64,000 nt of DNA, taken from contig CM074195.1 of the NCBI GenBank assembly GCA_037179385.1, positions 27,488,087-27,552,086 on the forward strand, written 5' to 3'. The translations under genes were made by a program, and so were the position numbers. Of this stretch, positions 12,923 through 63,459 are shown piece by piece. The DNA comes from Holothuria scabra. Taxonomy: Eukaryota; Echinodermata; Holothuroidea; Aspidochirotida; Holothuriidae. Every line of letters begins with the position of its first letter. The stretch's first letter is position 1. A model generated the notes under the pieces. It worked only from the letters and a program-made list of their open reading frames with translations, searched no databases and was not told the origin of the DNA.

Positions 12923-13349
12923 TCAGATTCTACCACATCCATGGAAAAACCTGTCAATGTTAACATTAAAGCAGTGAACTAAGGGGGAGTTAACTACCCA
13001 ATCGGGTAGGCAATTCCACTCGTTGACAACTCTTTGGGAGAAACTGAACTTCCTAATGTCAAGCCTTGCAAAAGGCTTTTCAAGCTTTTTACAGTGCCCA
13101 CGCACCCGAGAATTACTTTGAACCCTTAAATAACTACAAGTCAGAAGGGGATTCCTTTCACAAAAGAACTTGAAAACCTGGAGCACGTCTCCCCTAATCC
13201 TTCTCAGCTCCAAGGTGGTAAGCCCAAGATGTTTAAGCCTAGCATGATAAGGCAAATTTCTCACCCCTGGAATGCGGCGAGTGGCTCTCCTCTGAACCTG
13301 CTCTAAAAGAAACTTGTCCTTTTCATAGAAGGGACTCCAAGCCTGAGCT
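12923..13349 (-). pseudogene. 5'-truncated non-LTR retrotransposon, C-terminal end of ORF2
   Basis: On the - strand it encodes QAWSPFYEKDKFLLEQVQRR, then NLPYHARLKHLGL, LELRRIRGD and NEWNCLPDWVV. This is the conserved C-terminal tail of reverse transcriptases of CR1/L2-like LINEs. The frame stops at 12923, and a stop lies just upstream of the preserved part, near 13350. The protein is only the far end of the reverse transcriptase ORF, with no catalytic core. Followed by a short 3' region and the (TTATG)n tail. Confidence 0.85.
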
Positions 13350-25800: not shown

Positions 25801-28800
25801 TATGTTCTAGTATTCCTCAGTTTTTTGGCTTCCATCTTGTGTGTTCTTGGTTGATCAGAATATTATTGGAATCTGATTATAAAGGCTAATCATTAGCATA
25901 CATGTGCTACCCTATTTAAACATACATACACATAGATATATTTCACATGGTCTAATATTTCTAATGGTGATGTCATGGAAAGTTACAGTAGCATTTGTCT
26001 GTTAACTTTACATTACAGCATTACAAACAGCATGACAACTTTTTGAACATTACAATATGCAAGCTTCCTACTGTATACCTGTTCACTAGTTGTTCAAAGT
26101 GCAGTATTATTACATTACAGTGTGTGATGCTATATTAACCCTTCCAGTGACAACTTTAAAAATTATAAGACCTAATTCAAACCCTCCTCTCTTTGAAGAA
26201 AATTTCACAGGCAGAAACCCGTCTGGGTTATTAGATATGACTGTAGTCAGGTTGACCTTACAAAAAGGCACTGTTTAATCCCTGCATGAACAATATGTGC
26301 AACTATCTCAAAACCTTATCCCTTTTAAGAAAAAAATTAGTGGCAGAACTCCATCTAGGAAATATATGGCTAATCAGCAGCTTTTTGAATTCTTTTTGGA
26401 TTTTGTTTCCTGATGTATAATATACGTGCACTTTGATACATACCATCGTAGCTCATCACACTTTGTAGTATGCAATGAATATTTATAAATTCTTTTGTTT
26501 CAAAAGTGTTGAAGCAGGAAGATTGCTACCTGATGCCCATTACTTGTACCAAGCTTCTAAGTCATCAAAAATGCCTGCCTCTGGACATCCTTCAAAAGAT
26601 CTGGGGTCTCAAAAGGTAAATATGAAGACTGCACAGGAATTGGCAAGGCGACAGGATCATGGAAGAATTGTTGCACGACAGTTTAGAGAAAGAAATGGAG
26701 ATAGAAATTTGAAAAGAGCAGCATGTCCCCAACTGCCCTCTGTAGATGTAAAGTCAACCTCTGTGAAGCCAGTTGAAGGAAAGAGCCATCTTTACAGTGA
26801 GGGGTACCATCCTGTCGGACCTTTTAATAAACAACAGTTTAATGGTTGCTACTTTCCCAAATCAACAGATCCAGACTTCTTAGCCATATTTTATAGTCAC
26901 TCACGATTGCACCACTTAACGACTTGGAAAGCAAAGCACAAAGCATTTGTCAAAAAACTTCAGCAAAATGGGGATCATAGTTTCCCTGGCAGAGAGGAAT
27001 TGAAAAAATTGATTTCATCAAGAGGGGTGCAGAATCAAAGAGAATTGAAAAGAGATGAAATTGTAGCTGATAGAGCTGATGCTAAAGATGGGACAGGACT
27101 AAATGGGAGAGGCCAAAGTTCAAAAAAGGATGAACCTGTAATCATGCATATTGATATGGATTGCTTCTTTGTAGCTGTGAGTATGCTTAACTATCCAGAA
27201 CTTAAGGGCAAACCAGTAGCTGTGGCCCACTATGCATGGAAGTCAGACGGTAGTGGGCCAAGATCGGAGTCTAAACTTAAAGACAAGGAACTCTGGGCTG
27301 CACAACATAAGGCAGGAGCTTTCAGCAAAGACCCACCAAAAAGAAATAGCAATCCCTCCAATTTTGAAGGAAAGGTCCGTTATAGAGAACATTCCAAACA
27401 GAGGCAGTCACTCCTCAGCTCTATTGCCTCAGAGAGGGAAAATTTTTCTTCATTGGCGGAAATTGCCTCTTGCAGCTATGAAGCCCGCAAAGCTGGTGTC
27501 AAGAATGGAATGATCATGAAAAATGCCAAGCAACTCTGCCCAGATTTGAGAACCATACCATATGACTTTGAAGGCTACTACAGGGTGTCCCGACAGCTAT
27601 ATGAAATAGTTGCAAGGTGAGAAAATAACAAATTTGGAGTTTTCATCAGCAACACTGTTACTTGTAGATAGTAGATAAATGAGGTTATTAAAGAAATATT
27701 TCCACTTTTGTATTGAATGGTTGGAAAAGTACTTTTTCGCTTTAACTATGTTGCACAAAAAATATCTGAAATGTAGACATGAAATTCAATTCTGAACCCC
27801 AGTTTTTCCACTTAGTCCCTTCATTTAGTCCTCCATGAAGGGATCTGATAGCTGCAGTACCAATTTCCCAAGGCATTTTAAAACTACAAATTAAATTTTA
27901 TTTAGAGAGAACAGTCAGATGAAGAGCATTTTTAGAGTATGCCTCTCAATGTGAGAGGCAGAATTGGCCTCATCTCATAGTTTCTTCCTGTTTCAGTCTA
28001 GCAAGGCTATTGAAAGCCCACTCTCATATTTATTCAAGACCTCTCTACTTCCTGTAGGTTGTTCAACAATGGCAAGCTTTGTCAAAACTTGATCACAACA
28101 TTGTTATTACATAGCATTGACTCATAATTCACAACAAACGGATGTAATACATCTCGTAATTCACCCGAACATAACTCGAGATTCCCCGCCTCTTCCTTGT
28201 TTTCTTACAGGTACACACACGATATCGAGGCATGCAGTTGTGATGAGCTGCTGGTGGATATTACGAGAGTGTTGGAAGATACGAGGGCAACACCTCTGGA
28301 ATTTGCTCAGGTTTTGAGGGAGGAGATTTATGAAAAGACCAAGTGTACTGCCTCTGCTGGAATTGGTTTGTATCATTTAAAAATTGTATTTGCAGGACCT
28401 AATGTTGGAGGACTGTTCCATAGTAACTTTCATCTTCAATACATTTTTGGGCCTTTTTCCAAGTTTTAAGCCTAGGCTTTTAGCCTAACAAGACTGAGTA
28501 TGCACATACAGCAGAAAATGTGAAAGTTTTTTTTTTTATTATTATTTTTCACTTTGTTGGAAATAAATGGCAGAAACTCACTTATTCCAACCCAATGAAG
28601 GATGAAATTACATTTTGATGAAATAATATTGCATTTATTGAAATTTCCTTTAATGAAAGTGTACAATTTATGATTGCTTTACATTTCTATATGTACATTT
28701 TTTTTTTTATAAATATTTATCACAGTAGATTATGGGTAGGTGACCATGGACTGACATGAAGTTCTTTTTTAATTTTGTTGATCCTGGTGGGCAGAGTTAA

Positions 28801-31800
28801 GTTCTTGCTTGTCAATTTATAAAGGGGTGGAGAAAGTTACTATACCTGGAGTTCTTTCAAAAGTTCTGTCTATAAACTTGTGCTATCTGTTTCAAAGTTT
28901 TAACTCTGAATTTTAACTATGTAAAGTTATGAAAACCGTGCTTTGTTTAATACTGTAAGTTGGAGAGGAAGAAGTTAAGCACCCCACTCCAGTCAGTGTA
29001 TATATTGATATATTGCTGTCACAAAACATGATGGCAAACCTAGAACTACCAATTAAGTACAGCCTATGCCTTCACTACATGTATTCACACATGAGGGTTG
29101 GGCGGTACCGTGAAAATATTGGTACCAGTATTGCCAAACACACAGAACCGGTATTTAGGCAGTACCGGTTCTCAACTCCCAGGTAGGGAAGTAGGGTGGG
29201 AAGGAACCTAAGCCATGCATGGACACCATGTTTTTCTGTATATTAATGCATGTGGTTGTTTGATTGGGTTAATTGCCGTGCAGAAACTAGCTCTGCTCTT
29301 ATTGTTTGTGTAAATATTTTAATCATCCACACATCCTAACAGTTATTTTTTTCAGCGAATATAATGAGTAACAGAAATTTTTTTCAAGTACCGGTATTTT
29401 CTCAAGAACCGGTATTAAACACACCAAATATCTTCGGTGTTTTCATTACCTGTACCTCTAGTACCAGTATTGACCTCAGTACGGTATAACTGTCCAGCCC
29501 TAATTCACATGCCTTGGGACTCACCTGCCTACATCTCTACTGCATTTTGCATTTTTGATGTATGCTGAAGTAGATGCCAGATGGCAATATGGGTGATGTT
29601 TGGTATTATAGTTAACATCGTAAGCTGCAGCTGCTATAGATGAATCCGATTAGCGCTTGTTTTTAGTGACTGTAATTGGCCGCCATTAGTGGGATCCATC
29701 AGCCGTAAATCGTCTTTATTTATTGTTTACATGAATTTCAAACCCTCATGTTTAGTGAACTTGGAGAGTTTAGGATACAAATTAGTGTGCAACCATCCAT
29801 GATAGAGGTAAGCAAGGAAATTGAAAGATTTAAAGGTGATGGATCCCAGTTATGGCTGACTGAAATCAGACCGTCACTTGCTGTCCGAATTCGTGTATAG
29901 CTTGGCTGCAGCTGCCTCAGTCATGCTTTGATGGTACAGACATCATAATAGTAGGATTAAACTGGTCTTTTATGTATAGTAACAAAAGCATGGCCACCTC
30001 TGCTACAGCTTGGCTGAGGAATTTGAAGCTGGACTTTTTGATGTGGTGCCTTTATCACAGTCAGGTTTTGCTTTGTTGATGAAATGGGGTTCATATATCC
30101 ATTACTGTAGACTTGCAACAGATGGGTAGTGTCCCTATATGAGAGACTAAATAATAGCTAATCAAAAAGGCCTGAGCCTTTTTCTGATTAGCTGTTATTC
30201 CCAGCTTCCATGACTGTTGTAGTTTGATAGTTTTTGCAAAGTTGTTTGTAGTAAGTGGAAAAAAAAACTGTAAAATATGCAGTGGGGTGGGTAATACCAT
30301 AATGAATCATGATGTTTAAGTGAAAAAGCTGAGTCTATGTTGAAGTTAACTGTGACGGTATTTTTTTACTTTCAAATTTTCTTTCTAGCATCCTCTGCAG
30401 TGTTGGCTAGGCTCTGTACAAGGGTTGCCAAGCCTGATGGAATACACCAGCTTCAAGAAGGAGAGGAAGCACAATTACTTAACAGTGTACCAGTAAGAGA
30501 ATTACCAGGTAAGCAAATTTTGGACACGGTCAGTTCTCACCCTAAACTACAATTTTTGTGGTAGTGTATAGGAATTATCAATCGGGGCAGCTCTCTGATT
30601 GACAGCAAGTTCAAAAATGGAAAGTACTGTACCTCATATTGCACAAATAGTGCTGTACTGATAGTGAAAGTACTGTACTGATAGTGCTCTGATTACACAT
30701 TGGGTCTTGTGTATAGTCACCCAGAAGCACCAAACTGAAATTTTATCTGGATGAAGATGAGTTTTAGACAGCTGTGGGCTTAAGTACGCATTGGCGGGTT
30801 AGGAGAACTGGGATTCTGTGGGGTGACGGGATAAGGCCTTTAAATCAAACTGAAAAGATGCATGTATGACCAATTATTCATGTTGGTTTCAAACAAAAAG
30901 GAATAGAACATTATATTAAGAAGAGGTGCACAGCTTATGCAGTGAAACCAGTTTTCTGTGTTATTTTGGAATTGTAAGTTAAATTGCAAATAAAATTATG
31001 ATAGAGTTGTGTGAGTCATGCAAACAGTCTTTGTTTAAAGAAGTATCCAAAAGCCTTTGTAGAGATAATGTGGTAAACGCTGTACGTGTAAATCTATGGA
31101 GATTATGTCTTGTAACGTAGAAGGTCACTTTAAAGGAAAAACAATGTAGGTTTTCTGTTTAGTGTTGTAAACATAGTGATAAGTGATCACTGAAATTCAT
31201 GTTTTTGACTTTGTTGTGTGGTCCAGGGGTAGAGAATCTACCTCCCATGCACCTGTGAGGTCAATATCTAGGTTGTCAACTGGTATTTAATACTTAAGAA
31301 ATGGATCTTAGTGCCATTGTGTCTTATGAGCAATGGAGTAGGAAAACAATTTATTGCCCCACAGCTAAAAAAGGCTGCTGTATGTGCTAGATTGAAGTAG
31401 CAAATTAGAAGTTGAGGCTTAAAATTGCAACAAACCAAACCAACCAAAGTGTGTACTGGTGTCAGAAATATAGGAGGCACCAGGCTGTTAAGATGTAGGT
31501 GTAAAGTATGAAAATGTTGTGAGACAGTTTAACTTAAAACACTCATTGAAATTTTGAATTTGGGTTTCCAGCTATGTTTTACAAAGAATGTACAGTTTAT
31601 TAGTGCAGATTATAATATATGACATAGTATATATATGAAGGACACTTGAATTACAGAGTTAGAAAACGCTGGAATAGTAACACCCCAATCAGGTCACATG
31701 ACCCATAACAACAAGTCTGACAGTTTGGTTCTTTTGTTTTGCTCCTTTTTTTCATTCAGGTGTGTTTACGATGCAATAGACATGCTATGAAACAACCCAT

Positions 31801-55800: not shown

Positions 55801-58800
55801 GTGTATTTTCAAATTTGCAGACTTAAGGTATATTCTATTGGCTGCTCCAGCCTTGGAATCATGGGTGTAGTGGCTGTGACCCTTTTGCTACCAAAGAGGG
55901 CCCATTAGGCCATCCTGAGCTATGTATTATATTACGTATACTGGTATAAGTACATGTGTATACATCTGTCTGTGTATACATAAGTATATGTGTAAACACG
56001 TTTAATTTTTGTATGAAAGCCACCATATTTGCAGTGGCTATGCCCAAAGAGGATGCATATGTGTAAAACATCTCCTCAACAAGCCTATTCCATGTCCAAA
56101 ACACGATCACACACCTTAGGTTTATAATGAGCTATTCCAGGATGCAGCTGAGTGCTATGGTTTTGTGGGAAGATGCTTACATATAAAGTAATGGTAAAGT
56201 ATGGCTTTTCAGCAAAACCATGCTTAGCGAAGGGGTTTACATAATCCTTGATACAAACTTGTCAGTACTGTGTGCCATATACTTCTTTAGTGCACAATAG
56301 GAGGACCCTTGCAGCTGGGAGGTCTGGAGTTCGACTCCTGGTTGGGTCATACGGAAGACTATAAGCATAGAGCCTACTGCCATTGTGCATGGTACCCAGC
56401 ATAAGCAACGGAATAAGGAAAACAAACCAGTGAGCCACAACTGGGAAAAAGGCTGTGACCAGCCCGACTTAAACCAGTTGGTTAGAAACTGAGTTCTAAA
56501 ACCTCATCTAACAAGCTAGCTAACTCATGCGTGTTCAAGAGCATTCTTTTCCTATATAAAGAAGGTACCTCTGTTTATACAAATCTTTCAGGGATTGGAG
56601 AAGCAATTAGTCAGAAACTTCTCATGCTTGGTGTTACTACATGTGGTGAAATGCAGGAATTGTCTCTCACAGTACTGCAACGGTGCTTTGGAACCCGAAC
56701 AGGTCACGACTTGTATCAACATTGCCGTGGGAAAAATGACCAACCAATCAAGACAGAGCGGGAGCAGAAATTGGTCTCATCCACCGTGAATTATGGCATC
56801 CGTTTTAAATCGGTAAGGTGGATTTATTTTGTCCTTTATTGTTCTGTTTATCATGTCGGAAAAAATACCCTTAGAACAATCTCGTCAGGAACTGTTCTCA
56901 GTACTAATTATATGCCCATTTAAGCATTTGAAAATGACCATGAAGGTTGAAATTTGATAGCACTTAATTTCAGAATAAGCTGAGAGGGGATGTAGCCCTT
57001 CAGTGCACTCTAAGTAATTTGATTCCATTTTTGCCAGCACGTATTTCACGATTTGTTGTTAGTTGTTGGGCTCCTATTTTACCACAATAGTAATCAAATC
57101 TGCTGCTCATTGAAGCAGCTAATAGGAGTAATGAACCAGTGGTCAGGTACTATAATTGGGAACTGCAGTTTTTCCCTAAAAACTGTGGTAGCCATGACGG
57201 GTCTCCTTAAAGGCTAATATCCGGTAATGTGCTTGGAAGACTTAGCATGACATTTTAGACAGGTATCTGAAGTATTGCAATCCTGAATTCTACAAGCATT
57301 CCAACCATTATCGAAAACTAGGAAAATTCAAGATAGAAGTAATGATATGATCAACTTTATGAAATCCAGGAAGAGTTGGAGAGTTTTCTCCAGACCTGAA
57401 AAAACATCTTGAAATGCAGGGAAATTGTTTGAAGTTCTGGAAAAGTCACAGAAATTTTCACAAGGTGACATGGTTCCATTCTCAATCTTAACATCAAAGT
57501 GTTTTCTCACTCACTGTGTCAAAATTTACATTTCTCTTCACTTGGAGTTAAATATACCTTAAACATTCACGTCAAAGTGACTGATGTCACGTTTCGAGAA
57601 ATAACAATGAAACATGGTCACATTTATGATATCTGTGTATAACATTTATAGACTGGAAGTTTGCATACAGTAAAATTCCCCCAAAAGAGGGCATGCTATT
57701 TGCATTGTGACATCATGTGCATAAAGGTCTCTACTGCCTGCTTGCTGAAAATTATGGTGTGTTTTTGAGTTCCGGTCATGGAAAGTCTGCAAATGTTCCT
57801 GGTATATGTGTGTGTGTGTGTAGGTGTGTGGTATTTGTTCTGAAGTTATCCAGGGAATTAAATCATTGTTGTTTGTGGAATTAAATCTGTGTAGTTTGTT
57901 CACAGACATGTTATGGTGGGGTGACAATGATGTGAAGTAAGAAAAAATGCTAGGATTTGAAATCTGAAATGCAGTAAATAACTTGGTAAACTGCTTTAAC
58001 TAGTAGACACTTTATAATTATCTCCCACCTACTTATGTCCCCCTGTGGACTGGGGGTTGTAGAATATGCCCACGGTATTCCCCACCTGTCGTAAGAGGCG
58101 ACTAAAGGGGAGGACTTGAACAATATTTGAACCGTATGACACTATATAACACATTCGTGTTGGTGTGTCATTTAATCTTATCTAACTAACTAACTAGCCC
58201 ACCAACTTATGTGCAGCAAACATTGAAAACACTAATATTGAAATTGGTATGTTGAGGATGGAATTTCACTTTAAGAAGCATATTTTTGGTTCAAAAAAAT
58301 TCAGAAAGAAAAAAGAGCATCTTCTTGAAGAATGGGACATTAAAAAGTCTGGATTCCCTTTTGAGTGGCACTTTCCTCACAGAGCTAGTTATATATTTCC
58401 TTCGGCAAATGGTAGATTTTGACAAAATGATTTAAAAGCTTGTTTGCCTGTCATGATGCTAGAAAAATATGCCAAGTTTAGACACCCCCAGTTGACAACT
58501 AAAATTCCAGAGTTTATCAGTGATCTTCCTGTTCAGCTATCATAAGATTAAGAAATTTAAAACGGTTTTTAGTTGTATTTCAGTGAGTCATTAGTGATAA
58601 ACTTTATCACTTGAATAATAGCTCCTAAAAAAGGCATGGCTTGAAAACCCGAGAAAAGGGCTTTTTGTCGAGTCATTGTGGCTAAAACTGTTCAGTGAAT
58701 AAAAGCTGGTCTGATATGACTCTCTCTCTTTTCCCATCAAATGCAGAATGATGATGCCCTCAAATTTATCACAGAACTTGCTGAAGTGGTTCACAAGAAA

Positions 58801-61800
58801 CTACAAAAGACTGGCATGAGAGGAAGGACCATTATGTTGAAGTTGAAGGTAGGGGGAAGATAATAAATTCTCTGATTGCTGCTTTTAAAATGGATCTGTT
58901 AAGAGTATAAACCAAGTGCTTGAATGTATCATTTCTAAAGATAAACAGTACTTCTAGTTAAGTGCCTTTTTTAAGATCCTTTTCCCCCAAAGTGGTATCT
59001 TGATTCAAAATGCTTTAAAAATATAGTAAATGTGACAAAAAATTACTTCATTAAAATAGCTACTTTCATGTCATTATAATATAAATATACAAATTGCTCT
59101 AATGTTTGTTGAGCATGAATATACTTTTAAATCTTTCCCACCAGATTCGAAGGAAAGGTACCCCACAGGAAGAGCTGAAGTTCATGGGCCATGGAATATG
59201 TGAAAACAAAACCCGCACAATAAGCCTGAGACAGGAAACAGATGACTTGGCTATCATCAAGAGAGAAAGTTATGCATTGTATTGGCAGATGGGAGCTCCA
59301 CCAAGGGATATCAGAGGGGTACAAATCAATATTTGAGAATGTTCAATGTAATCGTTAAGCAGGGGCATATGGGCAGACATCAGACCATACAAAACCAATA
59401 CTTCAGGATGCTTAATATTAGGCCTTTTCAGTTTCAGTTTCAGTATATTTCTCGTCATCTCCCCTGACGGGGTACAAGAGACAAATGAAATTAATACAGT
59501 AACAAAATGCATGGTTTATATACAACAACAAAATAATGGGAAAAAAAGGTGAAAAGGCAGAAAAAGAAAACAGAAAGAGGAAAAAAAACTAAAGTATATC
59601 AATCATAGCATAAACATATAAGCACAATTTCTATGGAAGAAAGAAAGACCAGAGTTTGACTCTACACAGTCAAAGCACAAATGGGCACCAACTGAGTAGA
59701 AAAAGACTTAAGTTAGTAACAACTAACCACCTGAGAATTTAAAAACGCTTAAGGATTTCACCACAGAATGAACTAATTTTAAGTAGGGTCTTCTTGCTTT
59801 TAGATTGAAATAAGTTTTGCACCTTGAAAGTATTAGGATATCTATAATAGCAAGGAGCAATATATTTTTTCTTAATTGGGAAAATAACTGGCACTCGAAC
59901 AGATAGTGAAACTCATCACCTAATTTTTCTTTATTACAAAGAGTACAAAATCGCTCAAGAAAAACAATGTTATCATACCTCCCAGTGATGGTAGGAATTC
60001 TACTGTTGCTGCAACGAAGAAGACAAAAATTAAGCCTATTACACAATGGGAGATGAATTAAATATTTTTCAAAAGTAAGCTTTGTTTTAAAGATATGATA
60101 AATTTTACATTGGGAATTATTATTTACTTCAGCACACCATTCTTGCATATAAATATCACTAAGTCTATGATCAATAGTCTTCTTTAACCATGTTTGGCTT
60201 GAGAAATCAGTATTTCACATTTTACTACCTGCTTCAGAGCTCTTATTATCCCAAATGAAGGGCATACCTATCTTTTCAAAAACTTTTTTAATTTTTAAGA
60301 TCCAAGGAGATGAGTAGATAGCCCTATCATGTAGAACCCTCAAAACCTGTACAAAAGATATGACAATTTGTTACTATCCCCCTTTACAACCCTGCCCAGA
60401 AAAGTTATCATTCTACTCTCAATTGTCTTGATTAATTTACATCTGCCAAGCTCACAGTAAATCATACAATTTGGAGTGCTCTCTTTATGTTAATGAATCT
60501 GCTTACAAAAATTCAAGTGAAACAATTTAGTTATCTTCAGATCCTCAAAACCCCACACTTCACATCCGTAAAGAGCATGGGTAAAGTTAATTGGTCAAAA
60601 TGTTTTAACATTAAATCTAGAATTGCAGGTTATAAGATTTATTCAAAACACCAAACATAGCATCTTGGTTTGGTTAAGTTGCTTACATTTAGTCTTTTTA
60701 AATTTATTGTTGTAATTAAACATAACACCAAGGTAATTATAGTTATCGATTACATCGATTTTCTTATTTCCAAAATAAAAGTCTGGCCTCCGCCTTATCT
60801 TACTCCTTGAAAAAACCACCACTTTTGCTAGCATTAACTGACATGTTCCACGTTTCACAGTTATCCTTAATGCCATTTAGAGCAGATTGCAAGTCTGTGG
60901 CATTCTCAGATAAAACTATATATTATGTCGTCAGCATAATGGAAAGTTAAAAATTTGACATAAATTTCAGTATCATTATTACTACGGTGATCTCGCATTG
61001 ACTGTGATAAATTGCGTAGGCCATCGTAATACTTACTAAAAAAGTGCTCAGGCAGGGCACAGAGCTAAACACCAGAATGTGCAAAACCAGTACTTCAGGA
61101 TGCTGAATGTTGTCATTAAGTATGGACTAAGCCAGCCTTCTACATTAATGGTGTAATACTTGCCACTCCCCTCAAGGGAGGGATTGCAGTTTCAACTAGC
61201 AGTTGGAACTGTAATCTTGAAAATATATAGCAGCTTCTCTTAGGAAAAGTGAGGGAAATTTTGTGTCATTGCATCTTCATGAGGTAACTTTTTGTTGTAG
61301 TTTTTAAAAAAGATCAGCTCTGGATGAAAACTTTAAAAAAGAATATTCAGTTTTAAAGTCAACACCTACTTGTAACTTTTATCACTGATGGTTATTAAGC
61401 AAGAGACTCAAGTGATTACATTGTTTGGGTAAATTTGCATGAACACCACTTACAAAATGCTCATAGGGCAGCAAATTTATCAAAATAGGAACAAAACTTG
61501 AGTTGTGATTAATCATGCAATTGCTTCTCAGCCTTTTGGCTATGATCATGTGCAGTATCTGTTCTTCTCACTCAGTCTAAAATAGAGCCATACATGACAG
61601 ACGAATGATGTAAATGGTCTGAAGGCCGCGAGGTTGGTCAAGTGTTGTCCTTCAGTAGACATAATAGCTTCTTCGGGAAGCAGCTAAAAGTTTGGTTTTG
61701 CCGAATGGCCCTTTTCCAAAGGGTGGGGAGGACTTTAGAAAAGTGATTAATCATTCAATGTTCAGAATTTTTTGATATAATTTGTCCAAGTAGAGCCAGC

Positions 61801-63459
61801 ATTTTACCTCCTGCAGAAGATATGCTTTATTTGGAAACCACTCTTTGTTTATCAAATCTACAGGTTGGACTTCACATAACCCGATTAAAGAAATCAAGTT
61901 CTTCTTCATCCAAATCACTCATCGATATGCTTCCAAAGAAATCTGATCTGTCAAAGTCATCTACATCATCATCATTTGTGAAGTCACCATCTGTGAAGTC
62001 AAACTCTGTCAACAGTCCATCAAGTCCCTCACCGTTATCAACTTTTTTCACTAAAAAAGGAAAAGGAGAGCCAAGATTCTTTTTTCCTGAGGAAGATGAT
62101 GATGATGAGGTCTTCAAAGAAGAAGAAAATGGCTGCCATGTTACTGAAAAGAAGGTCAGATTTTCTTTTAAGGATTGGTTTAAAGGGACTGAATGAGCTG
62201 GTTCACAAAAATTCATGATATTTTCCGTTCCTGTTGAGATTTACTCACATCTTGATGAGTGAGTCTAGGGCTGGAAAAACTGTACATTAGGGGGAAATTT
62301 CCCTCTAAATAGAAAATGCCTGAATTTCCTGCAAAGGAGCCTCCCATCTTCCCAACTTTTTCCATGTATCTTGATGACAGATGGTCAAACTGAAGGAGGT
62401 TCTTCAAATCTGACAACTGAAATAAAGATGTCGTAGTTTATGATGTAAATCATTTGTAACAAAGTTGTGACCTGTCTTTTTGTTGGCTTGCTATTGTGTA
62501 TTAATCAAATGCAACCATTATCCCCCAAAACTACAACATTTACGAGAAAAGCTGTGTCAACTAGTTCCAGATCCACAGTTTTTCAGATGTTTCTGACATT
62601 GGTTAAATGATTATGGTTTTTGCAGAGACATGCATGAAAACCTGTGTCTTAGAGTGAAATGAACACAGATTTGATGGTTGCCTCATTTTTCACCGGTGTG
62701 TGACAGGTTTACAACAGGTTCGACTGGGAAACACAGGTTTGTCACCCAGGAACACACATGATCCCCATGTTTTTCACAGGTGGTCATGCATGGTAATTGA
62801 CAGAGGCTGACATATTCTTGTTTGTAAGGGAATTTCTAACATTTTCAGTTAATCCAGGGAGTCATATTTAAGGAAAGAGGCTAAGCGTCGTCATGCAAGG
62901 ATTTCGTTCAAACTTGTCACAAAATAATCGATATCAACTCAGTTCGCCCATTTAACTGGTTTTATTTTTGCAGGAATTGTATGTTCATGTCAATATAGTA
63001 CAGTATTTTACTTCTCTACATGGTATTTGGAGAAGGGGAGAAACCTCAAGGGGTGTCACACTTGGCATGTTGATGTCCCATATCGAGTGCAAGAACCATT
63101 ACATGGGTCCTCCTGATGATTGTCAAAAGTCAGTATGGGTCTTGTTATAAACAAATGTGAGCACAAAATATAAAAAAAAGGTAAATTGAAATTCTTGTAT
63201 TGCAATAAGACAGTTACATATTAGTGATAAACATCATCGAGTAACAGCTCTCAAGGGAGGCAGGGCTGGAAACCCAGGAAAAGCCATTTTGTCCTGTAAT
63301 TGTGGCTCAAATCTCTTATTATATTGTAGCAGCATCTTAACAGTTAAACTTTTATTTTTCTCTCTAGGGTATCTCTTCTTCACCCATTCAAAGCAGTCCT
63401 GACAAGCCAATCTTCTCCCCCAAACCAGTAACTATGTTTGGATCAAGTCCAACAAAAAG
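13837..63459 (+). CDS. REV1: REV1-like Y-family DNA polymerase with three tandem catalytic modules (gene overview, 3' end outside window)
   Basis: REV1 is a nuclear translesion polymerase that inserts dCMP opposite G and abasic sites and scaffolds other bypass polymerases. Joined exons: 13837-13839, 16151-16361, 17362-17530, 26507-27616, 28211-28365, 30389-30508, 35322-35542, 36997-37098, 38303-38476, 41155-43739, 44238-44392, 45783-45902, 46749-46972, 47279-47380, 49269-49451, 50991-52714, 53243-53397, 53689-53808, 56592-56812, 58747-58848, 59145-59318, 61864-62154, 63368-63459. They form one open frame of about 2,838 codons with GT-AG boundaries. Domain order: BRCT (about residues 57-135), module 1 (about 245-765), linker 1, module 2 (about 1350-1888), linker 2, module 3 (about 2190-2720), C-terminal start. 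Human REV1 has one module and 1,251 residues. The UBM motifs and C-terminal REV7/polymerase-binding domain are not seen and should lie to the right. Family identity is secure. The single-protein reading rests on the fused exons at 41155 and 50991. Confidence 0.94.
13840..16150 (+). other. REV1 intron 1
   Basis: Phase 0 intron with GTAAGT donor and TTCTCTGCAG acceptor. It has a short GGCCTA repeat near 13878-13895. No coding exon is recognised inside. A fragment of the second SINE family lies at about 15405-15470. Confidence 0.6.
16151..16361 (+). CDS. REV1: REV1 exon 2: N-terminal tail, PIP-like motif and first part of BRCT
   Basis: The acceptor is TTCTCTGCAG and the donor follows ACAG at 16362. 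The exon encodes a Ser/Lys-rich tail, then IFKGISIYVNGRT, which matches the start of the REV1 BRCT domain (human IFSGVAIYVNGYT). At 16250-16273 (about residues 35-42) it encodes PTSLTTYF followed by Lys, which resembles the non-canonical PCNA-binding boxes of translesion polymerases but lacks the first Gln. The last codon is split (G|AT) with exon 3. Confidence 0.88.
16362..17361 (+). other. REV1 intron 2, splits the BRCT domain
   Basis: About 1 kb, phase 1. A G-rich unique-looking segment is at about 16390-16620. No other feature seen. Confidence 0.7.
17362..17530 (+). CDS. REV1: REV1 exon 3: main part of BRCT domain
   Basis: The exon runs from a CTCTTTTCAG acceptor to a GTAAGG donor. It encodes DPPPEKLKRLILTHGGRY, then a THIIAS segment and LPSWITDS, the last codon being completed in exon 4. 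These match REV1 BRCT landmarks: the HGG turn, THIIA, and the Trp of the P-x-WI motif. In REV1 this domain helps recruitment to damaged chromatin and 5'-phosphorylated recessed primer ends. It is the only BRCT seen: modules 2 and 3 have none. Confidence 0.93.
18815..19097 (-). mobile_element. MITE family A, copy 3
   Basis: Contains CAATTGGCTCAGCTCTTTCA, TGAGGTTGTGTCTGGATGAGG, a right end GGTGAGAGGAT and CCTTTAA. Confidence 0.8.
19589..19896 (+). mobile_element. MITE family A, copy 4
   Basis: Starts TTAAAGGC with a CATCCCAAACAGTTCCAATT block. Has CAGACACAATCC and a GCCAATCAAAGAGCTG block, and ends CCTTTAATA. Confidence 0.75.
20943..21252 (+). mobile_element. MITE family A, copy 5
   Basis: Starts AAAGGCCTGATCCTCTCACC and ends GAGAAGATAAGCCCTTTAA, with all internal blocks of the family. 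The best-preserved inverted ends in the window. Confidence 0.82.
21950..23035 (+). mobile_element. MITE family A, copy 6, split by a nested insertion
   Basis: The left part (about 21950-22160) runs to GATATGAGCTATAG. The right part resumes at about 22926 with GCTTTTTGAACTTGCTGTCA. The 0.76 kb between starts GTGGCGTATCTAGACAC and resembles the dispersed repeat at 4240-4600. The insertion is therefore younger than the MITE. Confidence 0.7.
23400..23840 (+). repeat. Minisatellite of CTCATTGGTCCCC units
   Basis: More than twenty copies of a unit of about 16 bases, with a larger block (containing TTTAGCGTAATTCGTCTCATTAG) repeated twice at about 23530-23600 and 23750-23820. A long open frame across it is a by-product of the repeat. 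Confidence 0.9.
23850..23950 (+). repeat. Interstitial TTAGGG-like repeats with inverted minisatellite units
   Basis: GGTTAGGGTTTAGGGTTAGG-like sequence is followed by GGGGACCAATGAG units, the reverse complement of the preceding minisatellite unit. Together they can form long inverted pairs. Confidence 0.75.
24250..24440 (+). repeat. Dispersed repeat D, copy 1
   Basis: Shares AAGCATTTGAAAATG, TTTGATAGCA, CTCAGAATAA and AGTAATTTGATTCC in order with 33965-34520 and 56885-57200. No coding capacity. Confidence 0.65.
24640..24725 (-). mobile_element. SINE family 2 core fragment
   Basis: Contains GTGGGCATATTCTACAACCC, as in 32328-32500 and, inverted, 58036-58197. Confidence 0.5.
26507..27616 (+). 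CDS. REV1: REV1 exon 4 (module 1, exon A): end of BRCT, linker, N-digit, palm/fingers start
   Basis: The exon opens with VEAGRLLP, the end of BRCT (human IKAGRLLS), followed by a basic linker of about 100 residues. The REV1 N-digit motif FYSHSRLHHLTTWK follows. Arg261 (codon 26904-26906) and Leu262 correspond to the yeast R324/L325 and human R357/L358 pair that holds incoming dCTP and fills the place of the flipped template G. HIDMDCFFVAV has its first metal Asp at residue 344 with the steric-gate Phe behind it. The IASCSYEAR and LCPDLRTIPYDF segments are intact. Module 1 therefore looks like a normal dCMP transferase. It has an insertion between the palm start and SCSYEAR that is not similar to the one shared by modules 2 and 3. 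Confidence 0.95.
27617..28210 (+). other. REV1 intron 4
   Basis: No recognisable repeat or RNA. Donor GTGAGA, acceptor TTTTCTTACAG. Confidence 0.7.
28211..28365 (+). CDS. REV1: REV1 exon 5 (module 1, exon B): catalytic SCDE palm strand
   Basis: The 155-base exon reads YTHDIEACSCDELLVDITRV and ends in a CTASAGIG segment. The Asp509-Glu510 pair in SCDE corresponds to human D570/E571, the catalytic acidic pair. Intron phases and length equal those of the B exons in modules 2 and 3. The donor GTTTGT is weaker than its counterparts. Confidence 0.95.
28366..30388 (+). other. REV1 intron 5
   Basis: Contains a repeat rich in ACCGGTATT/GGTACCAGTA blocks (about 29100-29500), MITE family B copy 1 and dispersed repeat F (about 29560-29633 with 29901-30060, matching about 36190-36320 and 36650-36740). 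No coding exon seen. Confidence 0.6.
29634..29900 (+). mobile_element. MITE family B, copy 1
   Basis: About 265 bases with inverted ends (CTATAGATGAATCCG and CGAATTCGTGTATAG). Internal TTAGCGCTTGTTTTTAGTGA and GTAAGCAAGGAAATTGAAAG are shared with copies 2 and 3. It interrupts dispersed repeat F, so it is younger than that repeat. Confidence 0.8.
30389..30508 (+). CDS. REV1: REV1 exon 6 (module 1, exon C): palm, end of catalytic core
   Basis: The 120-base exon encodes ASSAVLARLCTRVAKPDG and then a variable segment to VRELPG. The AKPDG lysine, which contacts the triphosphate in Y-family enzymes, is present. The length is identical to the C exons of modules 2 and 3. A small inverted-repeat element begins about 15 bases after its donor. 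Confidence 0.94.
30523..30844 (-). mobile_element. MITE family A, copy 7
   Basis: Begins about 15 bases after the exon 6 donor. Has TCTCACCCTAAACTACAATT, TGATTGACAGCAAGTTCAAA and ends AAGGCCTTTAA. Confidence 0.78.
31213..31492 (+). mobile_element. tRNA-headed SINE (family 1), diverged copy
   Basis: Has the head TGGTCCAGGGGTAGAGAATC, then GTGCCATTGTG, GAGCAATGGAGTAGGAAAA and AAAAAAGGCTG in family order. Box B is degraded. Confidence 0.6.
31920..32310 (+). repeat. Dispersed repeat E, copy 1
   Basis: Similar along its length to 35640-36085: CAGAACTGACAGTCCTCAGA, GTTGGCAATGAATTGG, TCAAGGTTGTCTGTAC, GATACAGGA, TTATGACTAGATA. Confidence 0.75.
32328..32500 (-). mobile_element. SINE family 2, copy on - strand
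   Basis: Inverse of 58036-58197: CACCTCTTACAACAGGTGGG, then GTGGGCATATTCTACAACCC and CAGCCCACAGGGG, with the AT-rich 3' end GATAAGATTTAACGACACAC at the left. Confidence 0.65.
33486..33754 (-). mobile_element. MITE family B, copy 2
   Basis: Opposite orientation: starts TATAGAGGAATCCAGACAG, ends CTAATCGAATTCGTCTATA. Same internal blocks as copies 1 and 3. Confidence 0.75.
33965..34520 (+). repeat. Dispersed repeat D, copy 2, split by MITE A copy 8
   Basis: The left part (to about 34106) matches 24290-24420 and 56935-57050. The right part (34395-34510, GAGTAATGAACCAGTGGT) matches 57130-57200. The interruption is the MITE at 34107-34373. Confidence 0.65.
34107..34373 (-). mobile_element. MITE family A, copy 8
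   Basis: TTTAAAGGA left end, TTTGATTGACAGCACATTCA inside, CTGAGATTGTGTC and a GTTTGGGGTGAGAGG right end. Slightly shortened. Confidence 0.75.
35322..35542 (+). CDS. REV1: REV1 exon 7 (module 1, exon D): thumb with helix-hairpin-helix
   Basis: The 221-base exon encodes VGGSISKKLQNLG and then a CADLQQL segment. The helix-hairpin-helix core EFGPKTG and CRGQDDKPL follow, and the exon ends NYGIRFQT. These match the REV1 thumb and the thumb-to-PAD tether (human KEFGPKTG, CRGLDDRPV, NYGIRF). The acceptor is TTTTCTGTCAG and the donor GTGAGT. Confidence 0.95.
35543..36996 (+). other. REV1 intron 7
   Basis: Contains dispersed repeat E copy 2 (35640-36085), dispersed repeat F sequence (about 36190-36740) and a G-run of about 20 near 36878-36897. 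No exon seen. Confidence 0.65.
36997..37098 (+). CDS. REV1: REV1 exon 8 (module 1, exon E): polymerase-associated domain, first part
   Basis: The 102-base, 34-codon exon is in phase 0 at both ends. It encodes an acidic start, then FVYRLGGELHKRLKDLG and TITVKLK. It corresponds to the first helix and strand of the polymerase-associated domain (little finger), which grips the template major groove. Length and phase are identical to the E exons of modules 2 and 3. Confidence 0.94.
37936..38241 (+). mobile_element. tRNA-headed SINE (family 1) with (GGCT)n tail
   Basis: The head has GTCTAATGGTAAGAGCATCC and an intact box B, GGTTCGATTCC. The family body follows (CTTGGTGCATGATGCTCCGC, GCAATGGAGTAGGG, CGACTTGAACCA), ending in CCATCTAACTGACTGACTGG and a GGCT-rich tail. 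It lies in intron 8, just before exon 9. Confidence 0.85.
38303..38476 (+). CDS. REV1: REV1 exon 9 (module 1, exon F): PAD with the G-loop region
   Basis: The exon encodes VRRAGTPKEDTKFMGYG, then YDNRIRSQTLRQETDD and PEDIRG. KFMGYG aligns with human KFGGHG, the region that binds the evicted template G in REV1. It ends after the RG of the family sequence DMRGVGIHV, whose remainder is at the start of the next exon. Confidence 0.94.
39337..40060 (+). repeat. Minisatellite, period about 143 bases, with nuclear-receptor-like direct repeats
   Basis: About five copies share ATGGTCCC, TTGTTTTTGG, AAGGTCATCTGGGGTCA and ACGATATCTCAAG. AGGTCAAAGGTCA, a perfect DR1 element, occurs at 39359-39371 and 39618-39630, with variants at 39762-39774, 39906-39919 and 40037-40050. 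In intron 9. Confidence 0.85.
40457..40515 (+). mobile_element. SINE family 1, 3' fragment
   Basis: CAATTGGTTGGAAACAGGGC, then AAAACCTCATCTAATGAACT, as at the 3' end of the full copies. Confidence 0.45.
40644..40907 (+). mobile_element. MITE family B, copy 3
   Basis: Ends CTATACACGAATCGG and CCGGATTCGTCTATAT form an inverted pair. The internal TTAGCGCTTGTTTTCAGTGA block matches copy 1. About 250 bases before exon 10. Confidence 0.8.
41155..43739 (+). CDS. REV1: REV1 exon 10: end of module 1 PAD + linker 1 + start of module 2 (fused exon G1-A2)
   Basis: A single 2,585-base open exon begins with VGVQISRLK, the end of the module 1 PAD, followed by SLEDMLPKK. A PIP-like SYSLLNFV with a PKRK basic patch lies at 41311-41334. 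A Ser/Lys/Gln-rich linker follows with nine imperfect repeats of about 43 residues (about 41590-42690, core S-S-Q-F-S-Q-K-x-x-N-S-x-K). Module 2 then starts with FYRHSKYHLMSSW: Lys1367-Tyr1368 replace the family Arg-Leu pair. HVDMDCFFVAV has its metal Asp at 1459, and ISSCSYEAR is intact. The DNA joins two catalytic modules without an intron or stop, so this is not two neighbouring genes. Both splice sites are good (acceptor TTCACAG, donor GTAAGA). Confidence 0.95.
43740..44237 (+). other. REV1 intron 10
   Basis: No recognisable repeat or RNA. GTAAGA donor, CACCCGACAG acceptor. Confidence 0.7.
44238..44392 (+). CDS. REV1: REV1 exon 11 (module 2, exon B): SCDE strand
   Basis: The 155-base exon encodes SFTDEIEAVSCDEMFIDITK (first Ser codon completed from exon 10), then RDTG and CTASAGIG. 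Catalytic Asp1628-Glu1629 are present. It is closer to exon B of module 3 than to that of module 1. The acceptor CACCCGACAG is moderately pyrimidine-rich. Confidence 0.94.
44393..45782 (+). other. REV1 intron 11
   Basis: An open stretch at 45445-45690 has no recognisable product and no good splice sites. No clear repeat of the named families. Confidence 0.55.
45783..45902 (+). CDS. REV1: REV1 exon 12 (module 2, exon C)
   Basis: The 120-base exon encodes ASNTLLARLCTRIAKPNG, then IFQLEDDKVEDFMK and VRDLPG. The nucleotide-contacting Lys of AKPNG is kept. ASNTLLARLCTR is shared exactly with module 3 and differs from ASSAVLARLCTR in module 1. The acceptor (AACCTGAAG) is weak, but the junction is fixed by frame and by the two paralogous exons. 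Confidence 0.93.
46500..46640 (-). mobile_element. SINE family 1, 3' half, - strand
   Basis: AAATGGAGTTTTACGGCCCA, then CAGCTCAGGACTGG, CGAGCTGGCCACAGCC and GTGGCTCACTGGCTTGTTTT: the reverse complement of the family's 3' part. In intron 12. Confidence 0.65.
46749..46972 (+). CDS. REV1: REV1 exon 13 (module 2, exon D): thumb
   Basis: The 224-base exon is one codon longer than its counterparts, through an extra residue in KKLLAKFEIQSCADL. It keeps KEFGPKTGQILYQ, CRG and VNFGIRF. It is closer to exon D of module 1 than to that of module 3, opposite to the pattern in exons B and C. The acceptor is CACTGTTTTTAG and the donor GTGAGT. Confidence 0.94.
47279..47380 (+). CDS. REV1: REV1 exon 14 (module 2, exon E)
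   Basis: The 102-base, 34-codon exon is in phase 0. It encodes EEEVMDFIYRMADEMHKRLK and ends LTIKLK, matching the first part of the polymerase-associated domain. A poly-pyrimidine acceptor (TGTCTCCTTAG) and a GTGAGG donor bound it. Confidence 0.94.
47455..47672 (-). mobile_element. SINE family 1, nearly full, - strand
   Basis: Starts TTAGATGAGATTTTATGTAC, includes CAACTGGTTTAAGTCAACCT, TGGCTTGTTTTTCCAACTCC and GCACCAAGAGCAATGGGA, and ends in the head region CCAGGAGTCGAATTAGA (box B mutated). In intron 14. Confidence 0.75.
47673..49268 (+). other. REV1 intron 14, remaining part
   Basis: No recognised element. An inverted pair occurs near 47885-47920 (TTACCCGATTTGCC with GGCAAGTCGGGTAA), a good hairpin. 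Confidence 0.6.
49269..49451 (+). CDS. REV1: REV1 exon 15 (module 2, exon F): PAD, diverged G-loop
   Basis: The 183-base exon has three more codons than the F exons of modules 1 and 3, inserted before RFLGTG. It encodes VKRPGIVRNSQDDSRFLGTG, then FDSKYRSVTLPQETDD and PEDVRG. RFLGTG replaces the KFMGYG/KFMGHG of the other modules. With the altered N-digit this suggests changed template-base handling in module 2. Confidence 0.92.
50178..50437 (+). mobile_element. SINE family 1, full copy
   Basis: The head TGGTCTAGTGGTAGAGCATC fits box A, and GGGTTCTATTCCC is a mutated box B. The full family body follows, ending ACTCCATCTAAATAACTATT. Not a functional tRNA gene. In intron 15. Confidence 0.85.
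50770..50875 (-). mobile_element. SINE family 1 fragment, - strand
   Basis: TTATGGCTTACTGACTTGTT, CCCTACTCCATTGCTTATGC and ACACCAAGCACAATGGCAG match the inverse of the family's middle. About 115 bases before exon 16. Confidence 0.6.
50991..52714 (+). CDS. REV1: REV1 exon 16: end of module 2 PAD + linker 2 + start of module 3 (fused exon G2-A3)
   Basis: A 1,724-base open exon starts VGVQLSRLKK, followed by GVTKSLEEMMPKKSDL. PIP-like KYSLLNFV with PKRK lies at 51153-51176 (first residue Lys, as in the Pol kappa box). An acidic STFFSS segment follows, then about eight repeats of about 18 residues with core SKIxKN (about 51460-51870). Module 3 begins FYQNSKFHHISTWK: Lys2207-Phe2208 in place of Arg-Leu. 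HIDMDCFFVSV has its metal Asp at 2294, and VASCSYEAR is intact. The insertion with NIWYEDSERAYLEK and TWKN parallels NMWFDDCDRSFLEK and KWKN in module 2 and is absent from module 1. Confidence 0.95.
53243..53397 (+). CDS. REV1: REV1 exon 17 (module 3, exon B): SCDE strand
   Basis: The 155-base exon encodes SFTNEIEAVSCDEMFVDITK, RDTG and CTASVGIG. Catalytic Asp2464-Glu2465 are present. The acceptor is TTTAATTTTTCAG and the donor GTAAAT. It differs from the module 2 exon mostly by conservative changes. Confidence 0.94.
53689..53808 (+). CDS. REV1: REV1 exon 18 (module 3, exon C)
   Basis: The 120-base exon encodes ASNTLLARLCTRVAKPNG, IFLLEDSKVDDFMK and VRKLPG. The triphosphate-contacting Lys is conserved. 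It is flanked by a TCCTGCAG acceptor and GTAGTA donor. Confidence 0.94.
53872..54437 (+). mobile_element. MITE family C, copy 1
   Basis: About 0.57 kb. Inverted ends carry CAAGTCAAAAAATT and AAATTTTTGACTTGAG. Interior CACAATAAGTTGTGATGTCA and TTTGTATTTCTTTGTTTTTC match copy 2 in the same intron. Confidence 0.7.
54438..55249 (+). other. REV1 intron 18, middle part
   Basis: No recognised element. A Cys-rich open stretch at 54701-55009 has no family features or splice sites. Confidence 0.5.
55250..55842 (+). mobile_element. MITE family C, copy 2
   Basis: Left end TACACCTGAAGTCCCAAATT and right end AATTTGCAGACTTAAGGTAT form an imperfect inverted pair. The interior shares long blocks with copy 1. 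In intron 18. Confidence 0.72.
56270..56525 (+). mobile_element. SINE family 1, full copy near exon 19
   Basis: Diverged head with GGAGTTCGACTCCTGG box B, then GCCATTGTGCATGGTACCCA, GCATAAGCAACGGAATAAGG, CCAGTGAGCCACAACTGGGA and ACCTCATCTAACAAGCTAGC. Ends about 66 bases before the exon 19 start. Confidence 0.82.
56592..56812 (+). CDS. REV1: REV1 exon 19 (module 3, exon D): thumb, diverged hairpin
   Basis: The 221-base exon encodes IGEAISQKLLMLG, then a CGEMQEL segment, CFGTRTGHDLYQ, CRGKNDQPI and NYGIRFKS. The helix-hairpin-helix core FGPKTG has become FGTRTG, so thumb contacts with the DNA backbone may differ from modules 1 and 2. A tRNA-headed SINE ends about 70 bases before its acceptor. 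Confidence 0.94.
56885..57200 (+). repeat. Dispersed repeat D, copy 3
   Basis: The most complete copy: TTAAGCATTTGAAAATGACC through GAGTAATGAACCAGTGGTCA to AACTGTGGTAGCCATGA. In intron 19. Confidence 0.65.
58036..58197 (+). mobile_element. SINE family 2, 3' part with (CTAA)n tail
   Basis: TGGACTGGGGGTTGTAGAAT, CCCACCTGTCGTAAGAGGCG, GGTGTGTCATTTAATCTTAT and a CTAACTAACTAACTAG tail. The conserved middle looks like a SINE core domain; I do not name the superfamily. Confidence 0.65.
58249..58545 (+). pseudogene. Degraded coding-like fragment, unknown family
   Basis: A frame of 99 codons has one internal stop (TGA 58420-58422) and ends at TAA 58543-58545. Sequence includes KKSGFPFEWHFPHRASYIFP and, after the stop, MMLEKYAKFRHPQL. 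Its composition is more protein-like than the surrounding intron. It could be a processed pseudogene or transposon remnant in intron 19; no family is recognised. Confidence 0.25.
58747..58848 (+). CDS. REV1: REV1 exon 20 (module 3, exon E)
   Basis: The 102-base, 34-codon exon is in phase 0. It encodes NDDALKFITELAEVVHKKLQ and ends IMLKLK, the first part of the polymerase-associated domain. It is the most diverged E exon of the three, but length and phase are unchanged. Confidence 0.93.
59145..59318 (+). CDS. REV1: REV1 exon 21 (module 3, exon F): PAD with G-loop region
   Basis: The 174-base exon encodes IRRKGTPQEELKFMGHGICE, then TRTISLRQETDD and PRDIRG. KFMGHGICE is close to human KFGGHGICD, closer than either other module. 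The acceptor is CCCACCAG and the donor GTACAA. Confidence 0.94.
59420..61080 (-). mobile_element. 5'-truncated LINE with reverse-transcriptase remnant
   Basis: On the - strand, near 60905-60945, the sequence reads HYADDI, containing the YADD active-site motif. At 60643-60876 follow AKVVVFSRSKIRRRPDFYFG and NYNYLGVMFNYNNKF (thumb region), and at 59723-60148 a C-terminal part with a zinc-binding C-x2-C-x8-H-x4-C pattern (LCNKEKLGDEFHYLFEC). Frames are broken between parts. The 3' end has CCCCTGACGGGG and a TTTCAG repeat. Flanks share AAAACCA-TACTTCAGGATGCT (59388- and 61080-), a likely target-site duplication. Confidence 0.85.
61520..61590 (+). pseudogene. U2 snRNA pseudogene (5' end)
   Basis: ATTGCTTCTCAGCCTTTTGG, CTATGATCATG and GCAGTATCTGTTCTT follow the start of U2 snRNA closely. 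The invariant branch-point-pairing GUAGUA reads GCAGTA, and no good Sm site (ATTTTTGG) follows, so it is very unlikely to work in splicing. The match fades after about 48 bases, with weak similarity onward. In intron 21. Confidence 0.75.
61864..62154 (+). CDS. REV1: REV1 exon 22: end of module 3 PAD + start of C-terminal linker (exon G3)
   Basis: The exon begins VGLHITRLKK, then SLIDMLPKKSDL. A Ser-rich segment follows, then PSPLSTFF with Lys-Lys behind it at 62026-62049 (PIP-like), and an acidic FFFPEEDDDDE stretch. The donor AAG|GTCAGA at 62155 is not strong. Splicing to 63368 keeps the frame (phase 0). If not spliced, the frame ends at TGA 62194-62196, and an AATAAA lies at 62421-62426, so this could alternatively be a last exon. 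Confidence 0.85.
62155..63367 (+). other. REV1 intron 22, or alternative 3' end
   Basis: If exon 22 is not spliced, the frame adds 14 codons to a TGA at 62194-62196, with an AATAAA at 62421-62426. Otherwise a 1.2-kb phase 0 intron without recognised elements. Confidence 0.5.
63368..63459 (+). CDS. REV1: REV1 exon 23: C-terminal linker (last exon seen)
   Basis: The 92-base exon lies between a TTTTTCTCTCTAG acceptor and a GTGGGT donor. It encodes GISSSPIQSSPDKPIFSPKP and GSSPTK, a Ser/Pro-rich disordered stretch with several SP sites. The frame follows exon 22 without a stop. No database-recognisable motif is present, so support is from splice sites, open frame and position. Confidence 0.6.

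What the first reader, a model, noticed from the sequence alone, without database searches (positions are those of the whole stretch)
26507..61900. REV1 with three complete catalytic modules in one protein
Seen: three sets of the same exons, each with N-digit, H-[IV]-DMDCFF, SCSYEAR, SCDE, AKP-[DN]-G, thumb hairpin and PAD, all in frame, with two exons that physically join consecutive modules. Known: REV1 from yeast to human has one catalytic module behind one BRCT. Inferred: a three-headed translesion polymerase with one damage-recruiting BRCT and, presumably, one shared C-terminal scaffold. I know of no described case, but could not search.
Basis: partly seen in the sequence, partly recalled or inferred. 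Interest (0 to 1): 0.95.

Follow-up and report, generated by a model that had tools for sequence, protein, structure and literature searches.

The report
Three-headed REV1 with altered template residues
One gene, likely from a sea cucumber, carries three complete copies of the catalytic part of the DNA-damage-bypass enzyme REV1 joined head to tail in a single predicted reading frame, and the second and third copies have changed both amino acids that REV1 uses in place of a DNA template, so they would likely insert different bases.

Summary
Twenty-two predicted exons (GT-AG, matching phases) give 2836 codons without a stop: BRCT, then three full REV1 catalytic modules. Two long exons, open for 861 and 574 codons against shuffle maxima of 207 and 139, physically join consecutive modules. 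The modules are 46-51% identical and keep all catalytic acids. The nearest relative is an uncharacterized two-module protein of the sea cucumber Apostichopus japonicus. In the tree, module 1 pairs with its first module; modules 2 and 3 group with its second.

New point: the N-digit Arg-Leu pair that stands in for the template base is Arg-Leu in 225 of 225 other proteins with a detectable N-digit (230 examined) and in module 1. It is Lys-Tyr in module 2 and Lys-Phe in module 3. Three A. japonicus second modules have Tyr for Leu; two of these keep Arg, one has Thr. Heads 2 and 3 are therefore likely not plain dCMP transferases.

Against: no transcript evidence; the splice donor leaving module 3 is the weakest of 22; 0 of 4 A. 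japonicus models show the REV1 C-terminal domain; the whole-genome search did not complete (12 tries).

The parts
16151..16361 (+). predicted exon, start of the BRCT domain (true first exon and start codon not determined)
   Evidence: AG acceptor and GT donor; frame fits; P0052 match E 0.027
17362..17530 (+). predicted exon, BRCT middle
   Evidence: P0052 71% identity over 58 residues, E 9e-23; Pfam BRCT_2 E 2.2e-14 for the joined stretch
26507..27616 (+). module 1 exon 1: BRCT end, linker, N-digit (SRLHH 26901-26915), palm and fingers start (HIDMDCFF, SCSYEAR)
28211..28365 (+). module 1 exon 2 (SCDE); donor GTTTGT is second weakest of 22
30389..30508 (+). module 1 exon 3 (AKPDG)
35322..35542 (+). 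module 1 exon 4 (thumb hairpin)
36997..37098 (+). module 1 exon 5 (PAD part 1)
38303..38476 (+). module 1 exon 6 (PAD part 2)
41155..43739 (+). joining exon 1: post-PAD tail of module 1, Ser-rich linker, N-digit of module 2 (SKYHL 42985-42999), palm and fingers start
   Evidence: 861 open codons, shuffle maximum 207; P0052 residues 756-788 and 226-496 match its two ends
44238..44392 (+). module 2 exon 2 (SCDE)
45783..45902 (+). module 2 exon 3 (AKPNG)
46749..46972 (+). module 2 exon 4 (thumb hairpin)
47279..47380 (+). module 2 exon 5 (PAD part 1)
49269..49451 (+). module 2 exon 6 (PAD part 2)
   Evidence: P0001 and P0052 match, P0056 does not at E 0.01
50991..52714 (+). joining exon 2: post-PAD tail of module 2, linker, N-digit of module 3 (SKFHH 51972-51986), palm and fingers start
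   Evidence: 574 open codons, shuffle maximum 139; P0052 residues 756-788 and 166-497 match its two ends
53243..53397 (+). module 3 exon 2 (SCDE)
53689..53808 (+). module 3 exon 3 (AKPNG)
56592..56812 (+). module 3 exon 4 (thumb hairpin)
58747..58848 (+). module 3 exon 5 (PAD part 1)
59145..59318 (+). module 3 exon 6 (PAD part 2); donor GTACAA is the weakest of 22, and reading through it gives VQINI then stop
61864..62154 (+). tail exon after module 3 (VGLHITRLKK, PIP-like motifs 61909-61947 and 62026-62064; the motif name is recalled, binding untested)
   Evidence: matches the sequence after the last module of P0001, E 1.6e-11 over residues 1870-1925
63368..63459 (+). possible next tail exon (KPVTMFG); the gene appears to run past the window end
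   Evidence: frame fits; only weak likeness to A. japonicus tails (E 1.0, and by eye)

Best explanation
This is a single REV1 gene in which 22 predicted exons with matching splice phases encode one BRCT domain and three complete catalytic modules in one uninterrupted frame, likely made as one three-headed polymerase whose first head would act as the usual dCMP transferase and whose second and third heads likely choose the incoming nucleotide differently. Shown: the exon chain and in-frame joins, the intact catalytic residues, the changed template pair, and the relatedness to A. japonicus. Inferred: the BRCT and the clamp- or ubiquitin-binding segments tether the protein at stalled forks. Head 1 evicts the template base with its leucine and pairs its arginine with dCTP. 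In heads 2 and 3 an aromatic side chain would fill the place of the evicted base, and lysine in place of arginine cannot make the same two-point contact with cytosine, so dCTP selectivity should weaken or shift. Origin (inferred): an exchange between the Ser-rich coding linkers after the PAD and before the N-digit made a chimeric joining exon; the resulting block, which starts and ends in phase 0, was then duplicated again, giving modules 2 and 3.
For: 2836 codons with 0 stops across 22 GT-AG exons. Joining exons open for 861 and 574 codons, shuffle maxima 207 and 139. 18 of 18 module exons recovered with each of two outside proteins, 17 of 18 with a third. Codon positions 1, 2, 3 differ by 37.5, 29.8 and 59.9% between modules 1 and 2 (dN 0.46, dS 2.7), similar position patterns in the other two pairs. 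D423, D425, F428, D570 and E571 kept in the three window modules. R357-L358 in 225 of 225 other proteins with a detectable N-digit; K-Y and K-F in modules 2 and 3. Of 65 near-invariant columns, 50 are unchanged in all five extra modules of the two species; 358 and 699 are the only ones changed in all five but not in module 1. Tree: modules 2, 3 and three A. japonicus second modules group at 100, apart from the module 1 pair at 100. Role of the pair: PMC9130138 (arginine) and PMC7913688 (L358), passages read.
Against: No transcript evidence. The donor after module 3 scores lowest of 22 and read-through stops after VQINI. dS could be computed for only one of three module pairs, the other two being saturated. 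Two of five extra modules keep Arg at 357, and the A. japonicus P0053 module has D at 571. A. japonicus P0001 has two modules, not three. The REV1 C-terminal domain is not in the window nor in 4 of 4 A. japonicus models. Lys or Thr plus an aromatic residue at these positions has not been assayed in any paper seen.
Confidence: 0.6

Rival explanations
1. Optional heads: each module block starts and ends in phase 0, and different transcripts carry one, two or three modules by skipping a block, so much of the protein made has fewer than three heads.
For: Module blocks are phase-symmetric: the last exon of each module ends, and each joining or tail exon starts, on a codon border. The donor after module 3 is weak.
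Against: Skipping a block would need splicing over whole six-exon units; no sign of it can be seen in DNA alone. The A. japonicus model P0001 keeps both of its modules in one protein.
Confidence: 0.2
2. Structural heads: modules 2 and 3 no longer synthesise DNA in a useful way and serve as DNA- or G-quadruplex-binding arms of the first head.
For: The template pair is changed and further near-invariant PAD and thumb positions differ, such as 699 in both, and 709, 738 and 742 in module 3.
Against: All five catalytic and steric-gate positions checked are intact in modules 2 and 3; 50 of 65 near-invariant columns are unchanged in all five extra modules.
Confidence: 0.15
3. Decaying tandem duplicates: the extra modules are on the way to being pseudogenes.
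For: Module 2 has the longest branch of the three window modules (0.61 against 0.35 and 0.28); one weak donor.
Against: 0 stops in 2836 codons; third codon positions change most; modules of the same kind in A. japonicus.
Confidence: 0.05
4. Assembly artefact: copies of one gene or haplotype were strung together wrongly.
For: Only one genome is seen with three modules, and its reads could not be examined.
Against: Modules are 46-51% identical as proteins. Self-BLASTN on the + strand beyond 16 kb shows, outside local tandem repeats, no match of 60 bases or more above 83.2% identity. The joins are inside open exons, and A. japonicus has a two-module model.
Confidence: 0.03

Closest known systems
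REV1 with one module (human 3gqc, yeast 2aq4; deoxycytidyl transferase)
   Same: Each module matches human REV1 3gqc best among solved structures, E 6.4e-124, 9e-108 and 2.5e-120; BRCT, N-digit, palm, fingers, thumb and PAD in the same order; module 1 keeps SRLHH.
   Different: Three modules instead of one; modules 2 and 3 have Lys-Tyr and Lys-Phe in place of Arg-Leu.
Apostichopus japonicus 'uncharacterized protein' P0001 (2189 residues) and models P0051, P0053
   Same: P0001 has two palms and two PADs; P0051 and P0053 have two PADs. Same kind of join. Second modules have Tyr at the leucine position in 3 of 3.
   Different: Two modules, module 2 type absent; first-module N-digit missing from the models; BRCT not in the models; Arg kept in P0001 and P0051, Thr in P0053.
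Apatococcus lobatus P0046, a green-alga model with two Y-family palms
   Same: Two Y-family catalytic parts in one predicted protein.
   Different: Not REV1: no N-digit detected, and no sign of shared origin with this array; may be a gene-model fusion.
P0045, REV1-REV3 fusion protein of unnamed source
   Same: A REV1-type module in cis with a second polymerase.
   Different: The partner is a family B polymerase with REV3_N, not a further REV1 module.

Membership tests
REV1 | N-terminal BRCT domain | tested here: met
   Pfam BRCT_2 E 2.2e-14 and BRCT E 3.4e-8 on the joined N-terminal exons
REV1 | Palm, fingers, thumb and PAD of REV1 type | tested here: met
   IMS, IMS_HHH_1 and IMS_C above cut-off in all three modules; best solved match human REV1; modules nest among echinoderm REV1 in the tree
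REV1 | Catalytic acids D423, D570, E571 and steric gate F428 (human numbering from 3gqc) | tested here: met
   Kept in all three window modules
REV1 | Protein-template pair Arg357-Leu358, module 1 | tested here: met
   SRLHH at 26901-26915
REV1 | Protein-template pair Arg357-Leu358, modules 2 and 3 | tested here: not met
   SKYHL and SKFHH; RL in 225 of 225 others with a detectable N-digit. By descent these are REV1 modules; by this feature they are not standard ones
REV1 | Ubiquitin-binding motifs (UBM) | tested here: inconclusive
   Not reached in the window. Relatives: P0001 23.0, P0169 22.6 and P0051 20.4 bits against a Pfam cut-off of 23.3, none listed for P0053
REV1 | C-terminal domain REV1_C that recruits other polymerases | tested here: inconclusive
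   Window ends before it. 0 of 4 A. japonicus models match REV1_C at E 0.001, while the control P0002 (Mya) matches at E 5e-10
REV1 | Single catalytic module | tested here: not met
   Three modules in one frame; 233 of 235 listed proteins have one palm
REV1 | dCMP transferase activity | not testable with these tools
   Needs purified modules

The most novel reading that the evidence does not exclude
Sea cucumbers turned REV1 into a self-contained multi-head bypass enzyme: one head writes C with arginine as its template, and the other heads use new side-chain templates (Lys-Tyr, Lys-Phe, Arg-Tyr, Thr-Tyr) to write other bases, replacing in cis the inserter polymerases that REV1 elsewhere recruits through a C-terminal domain that these proteins have lost.
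Probability: 0.15. Interest if true: 0.95.

Novelty: new variant of a known kind. Interest (0 to 1): 0.8.

Why it matters
[quoted passage not shown] All 225 other proteins with a detectable N-digit that were compared here show the same Arg-Leu pair. These modules are natural variants at exactly those two positions inside otherwise intact active sites, so they offer a direct test of whether a protein template can be rewritten. They also ask what a polymerase gains from several inserter heads on one tether, and whether that can stand in for switching between separate polymerases.

Tried and rejected
Assembly or haplotype artefact: rejected on 46-51% module identity, self-BLASTN and the A. japonicus two-module model.

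A fourth module right after 61864: no sign. The exon matches the sequence after the last module of P0001 (E 1.6e-11), and tblastn with P0001, P0052 and P0056 lists no module exon after 59333. The link of exon 63368-63459 to the A. japonicus tail is weak (E 1.0).

First count of the template pair (216 rows) was circular, because rows had been chosen for holding SRLH. It was replaced by a count that locates the N-digit by a profile whose seed includes the divergent modules: 235 listed proteins, less 4 of A. japonicus, less P0050 (no strong match), leaves 230; 225 had a detectable N-digit, all Arg-Leu. The five without are P0043, P0046 and the bacterial-type fusions P0047-P0049. One row printed as 'DC' is a pattern hit upstream of its SRLHH. 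The 225 are not independent (many vertebrate isoforms), and the two large searches listed 120 of 2640 and 120 of 1441 matches.

M1 motif upstream of the BRCT: not found by pattern on the + strand before 17500; not proof of absence.

Matching the module number to trimeric PCNA: dropped, since A. japonicus models show two modules.

Literature: no report of a multi-module REV1 in the listings. These cover open-licence PMC papers only, and lists were capped (15 of 164; 10 of 2220; 8 of 16; 8 of 30). One search, for human R357A and L358A together with four other terms (at least 5 of 6), found 0. Passages, not whole texts, were read of PMC7913688, PMC9130138, PMC12871630 and PMC9141541.

No structure prediction or fold search was run.

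Full report
What is there. The + strand from 16151 to 63459 carries 22 predicted exons with GT-AG borders and matching phases; joined, they read 2836 codons without a stop. The order is BRCT, module 1, module 2, module 3, tail. Each module has six exons of the same content: N-digit with palm and fingers start; SCDE exon; AKP exon; thumb hairpin; PAD part 1; PAD part 2. Outside proteins recover them by tblastn at E below 0.01: P0001 (A. japonicus) 18 of 18, P0052 (source unknown) 18 of 18, P0056 (Patiria) 17 of 18, missing the last exon of module 2. The modules are 46.1, 46.2 and 50.9% identical in pairs. Each matches human REV1 3gqc best among solved structures, E 6.4e-124, 9e-108 and 2.5e-120.

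The joins. Exons 41155-43739 and 50991-52714 hold the post-PAD tail of one module at the 5' end and the N-digit and palm of the next at the 3' end. P0052 residues 756-788 and 226-496 match the two ends of the first join, and 756-788 and 166-497 those of the second. The exons are open for 861 and 574 codons. In 500 base shuffles of each, the longest open run was 207 and 139. The longest run in non-exon + strand sequence of the window is 225 codons, the frame at 23180-23854 that holds a minisatellite. Two separate genes side by side would not give such exons.

Constraint. Modules 1 and 2 differ at 37.5, 29.8 and 59.9% of codon positions 1, 2 and 3; NG86 gives dN 0.46 and dS 2.7. In the other two pairs third positions also differ most (61.1 and 60.3%), but dS is saturated and was not computable. 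This fits long purifying selection on the protein.

Relatives. Among 50 proteins in the long-protein search the top hit is P0001, an 'uncharacterized protein' of A. japonicus. Of the 235 proteins listed by the three searches, 2 have two palms (P0001 and the algal P0046), and 3 have two PADs (P0001, P0051, P0053, all A. japonicus). P0001, P0051 and P0053 come from contigs of the same length, 28,441,223, so A. japonicus likely holds several such genes on one chromosome. In the tree of 31 sequences (489 columns, LG+G4+F, 1000 ultrafast bootstraps) the window and A. japonicus modules form one group at 100, next to P0052. Module 1 joins the first module of P0001 at 100. Module 2 is sister to module 3 plus the three A. 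japonicus second modules (100 for both nodes), and the A. japonicus ones group at 99. So the split of modules 2 and 3 predates the split of the two species, and A. japonicus either lost module 2 or its models lack it. That the window comes from a sea cucumber is inferred from this tree alone.

The template residues. REV1 evicts the template base, and an arginine (yeast R324) makes two hydrogen bonds with dCTP (PMC9130138, passages); human L358 of the N-digit helps evict the template guanine (PMC7913688, passages). In the PDB alignments the pair is RL of SRLHH in both human and yeast. Module 1 has SRLHH, module 2 SKYHL, module 3 SKFHH. The A. japonicus second modules have SRYHH (P0001, P0051) and STYHH (P0053); its first-module N-digits are missing from the models. 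In 225 of 225 other proteins with a detectable N-digit, of 230 examined, the pair is RL. Of 65 columns at least 97% conserved in those 225, 50 are unchanged in all five extra modules. Only 358, 699 and 711 are changed in all five, and 711 is also changed in module 1. D423, D425, F428, D570 and E571 are kept in the three window modules; P0053 has D at 571. So the residues that choose the nucleotide changed while those that do the chemistry stayed. The leucine change may be one ancestral event; the arginine is replaced in three of five.

How it likely works (inferred). Head 1 should transfer dCMP as usual. In heads 2 and 3 an aromatic ring would take the place of the evicted base, and lysine would replace the two-point contact with cytosine, so dCTP selectivity should drop or shift. 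PIP-like motifs (pattern and name recalled, binding untested) lie after each PAD, two in each joining exon start and two in the tail exon. They could give each head its own clamp contact. The A. japonicus models end at a shared tail without a REV1_C match, 0 of 4. If that holds here, the enzyme would not recruit partner inserters through that domain.

Weak points. There is no RNA evidence. The first exon and the C-terminus are not in the model. The window's genome could not be searched, so an ordinary second REV1 in the same genome is neither shown nor excluded.

Verdict. The three-module gene is well supported by the sequence and is a new variant of a known kind. The difference between the heads at the template pair is the more surprising part, and it can be tested directly with purified modules.

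Noticed in passing
P0045 (protein hit, source ena): A 3432-residue protein joins a REV1-type IMS and IMS_C part to REV3_N, DNA_pol_B and the C4 zinc finger: a REV1-REV3 (Pol zeta) fusion by Pfam. Organism unknown.
   Followed up: partly
P0046 (protein hit, Apatococcus lobatus): A green-alga gene model of 1952 residues has two Y-family polymerase palms; real protein or model fusion not decided.
   Followed up: partly
P0169 (protein hit, A. japonicus): Named 'alpha integrin binding protein 80' but is a REV1 module protein nearly identical in most of its length to P0051; the name misleads.
   Followed up: partly
P0051 and P0053 (A. japonicus): Two further two-PAD models from a contig of the same length as that of P0001; the array may have multiplied on one chromosome.
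   Followed up: partly
window 59318-59336: Very weak donor GTACAA after module 3; without splicing the frame stops after five codons. Could be a regulated end or a sequence error.
   Followed up: partly
window 12512-12822: Perfect array of the pentamer ATAAC, 62 copies.
   Followed up: no
window 23399-23848: 16-base minisatellite, open over long stretches in several + strand frames.
   Followed up: no
window 12926-13348 (-) and 59726-60214 (-): Open frames on the minus strand that look like pieces of retrotransposon reverse transcriptases, by eye only.
   Followed up: no
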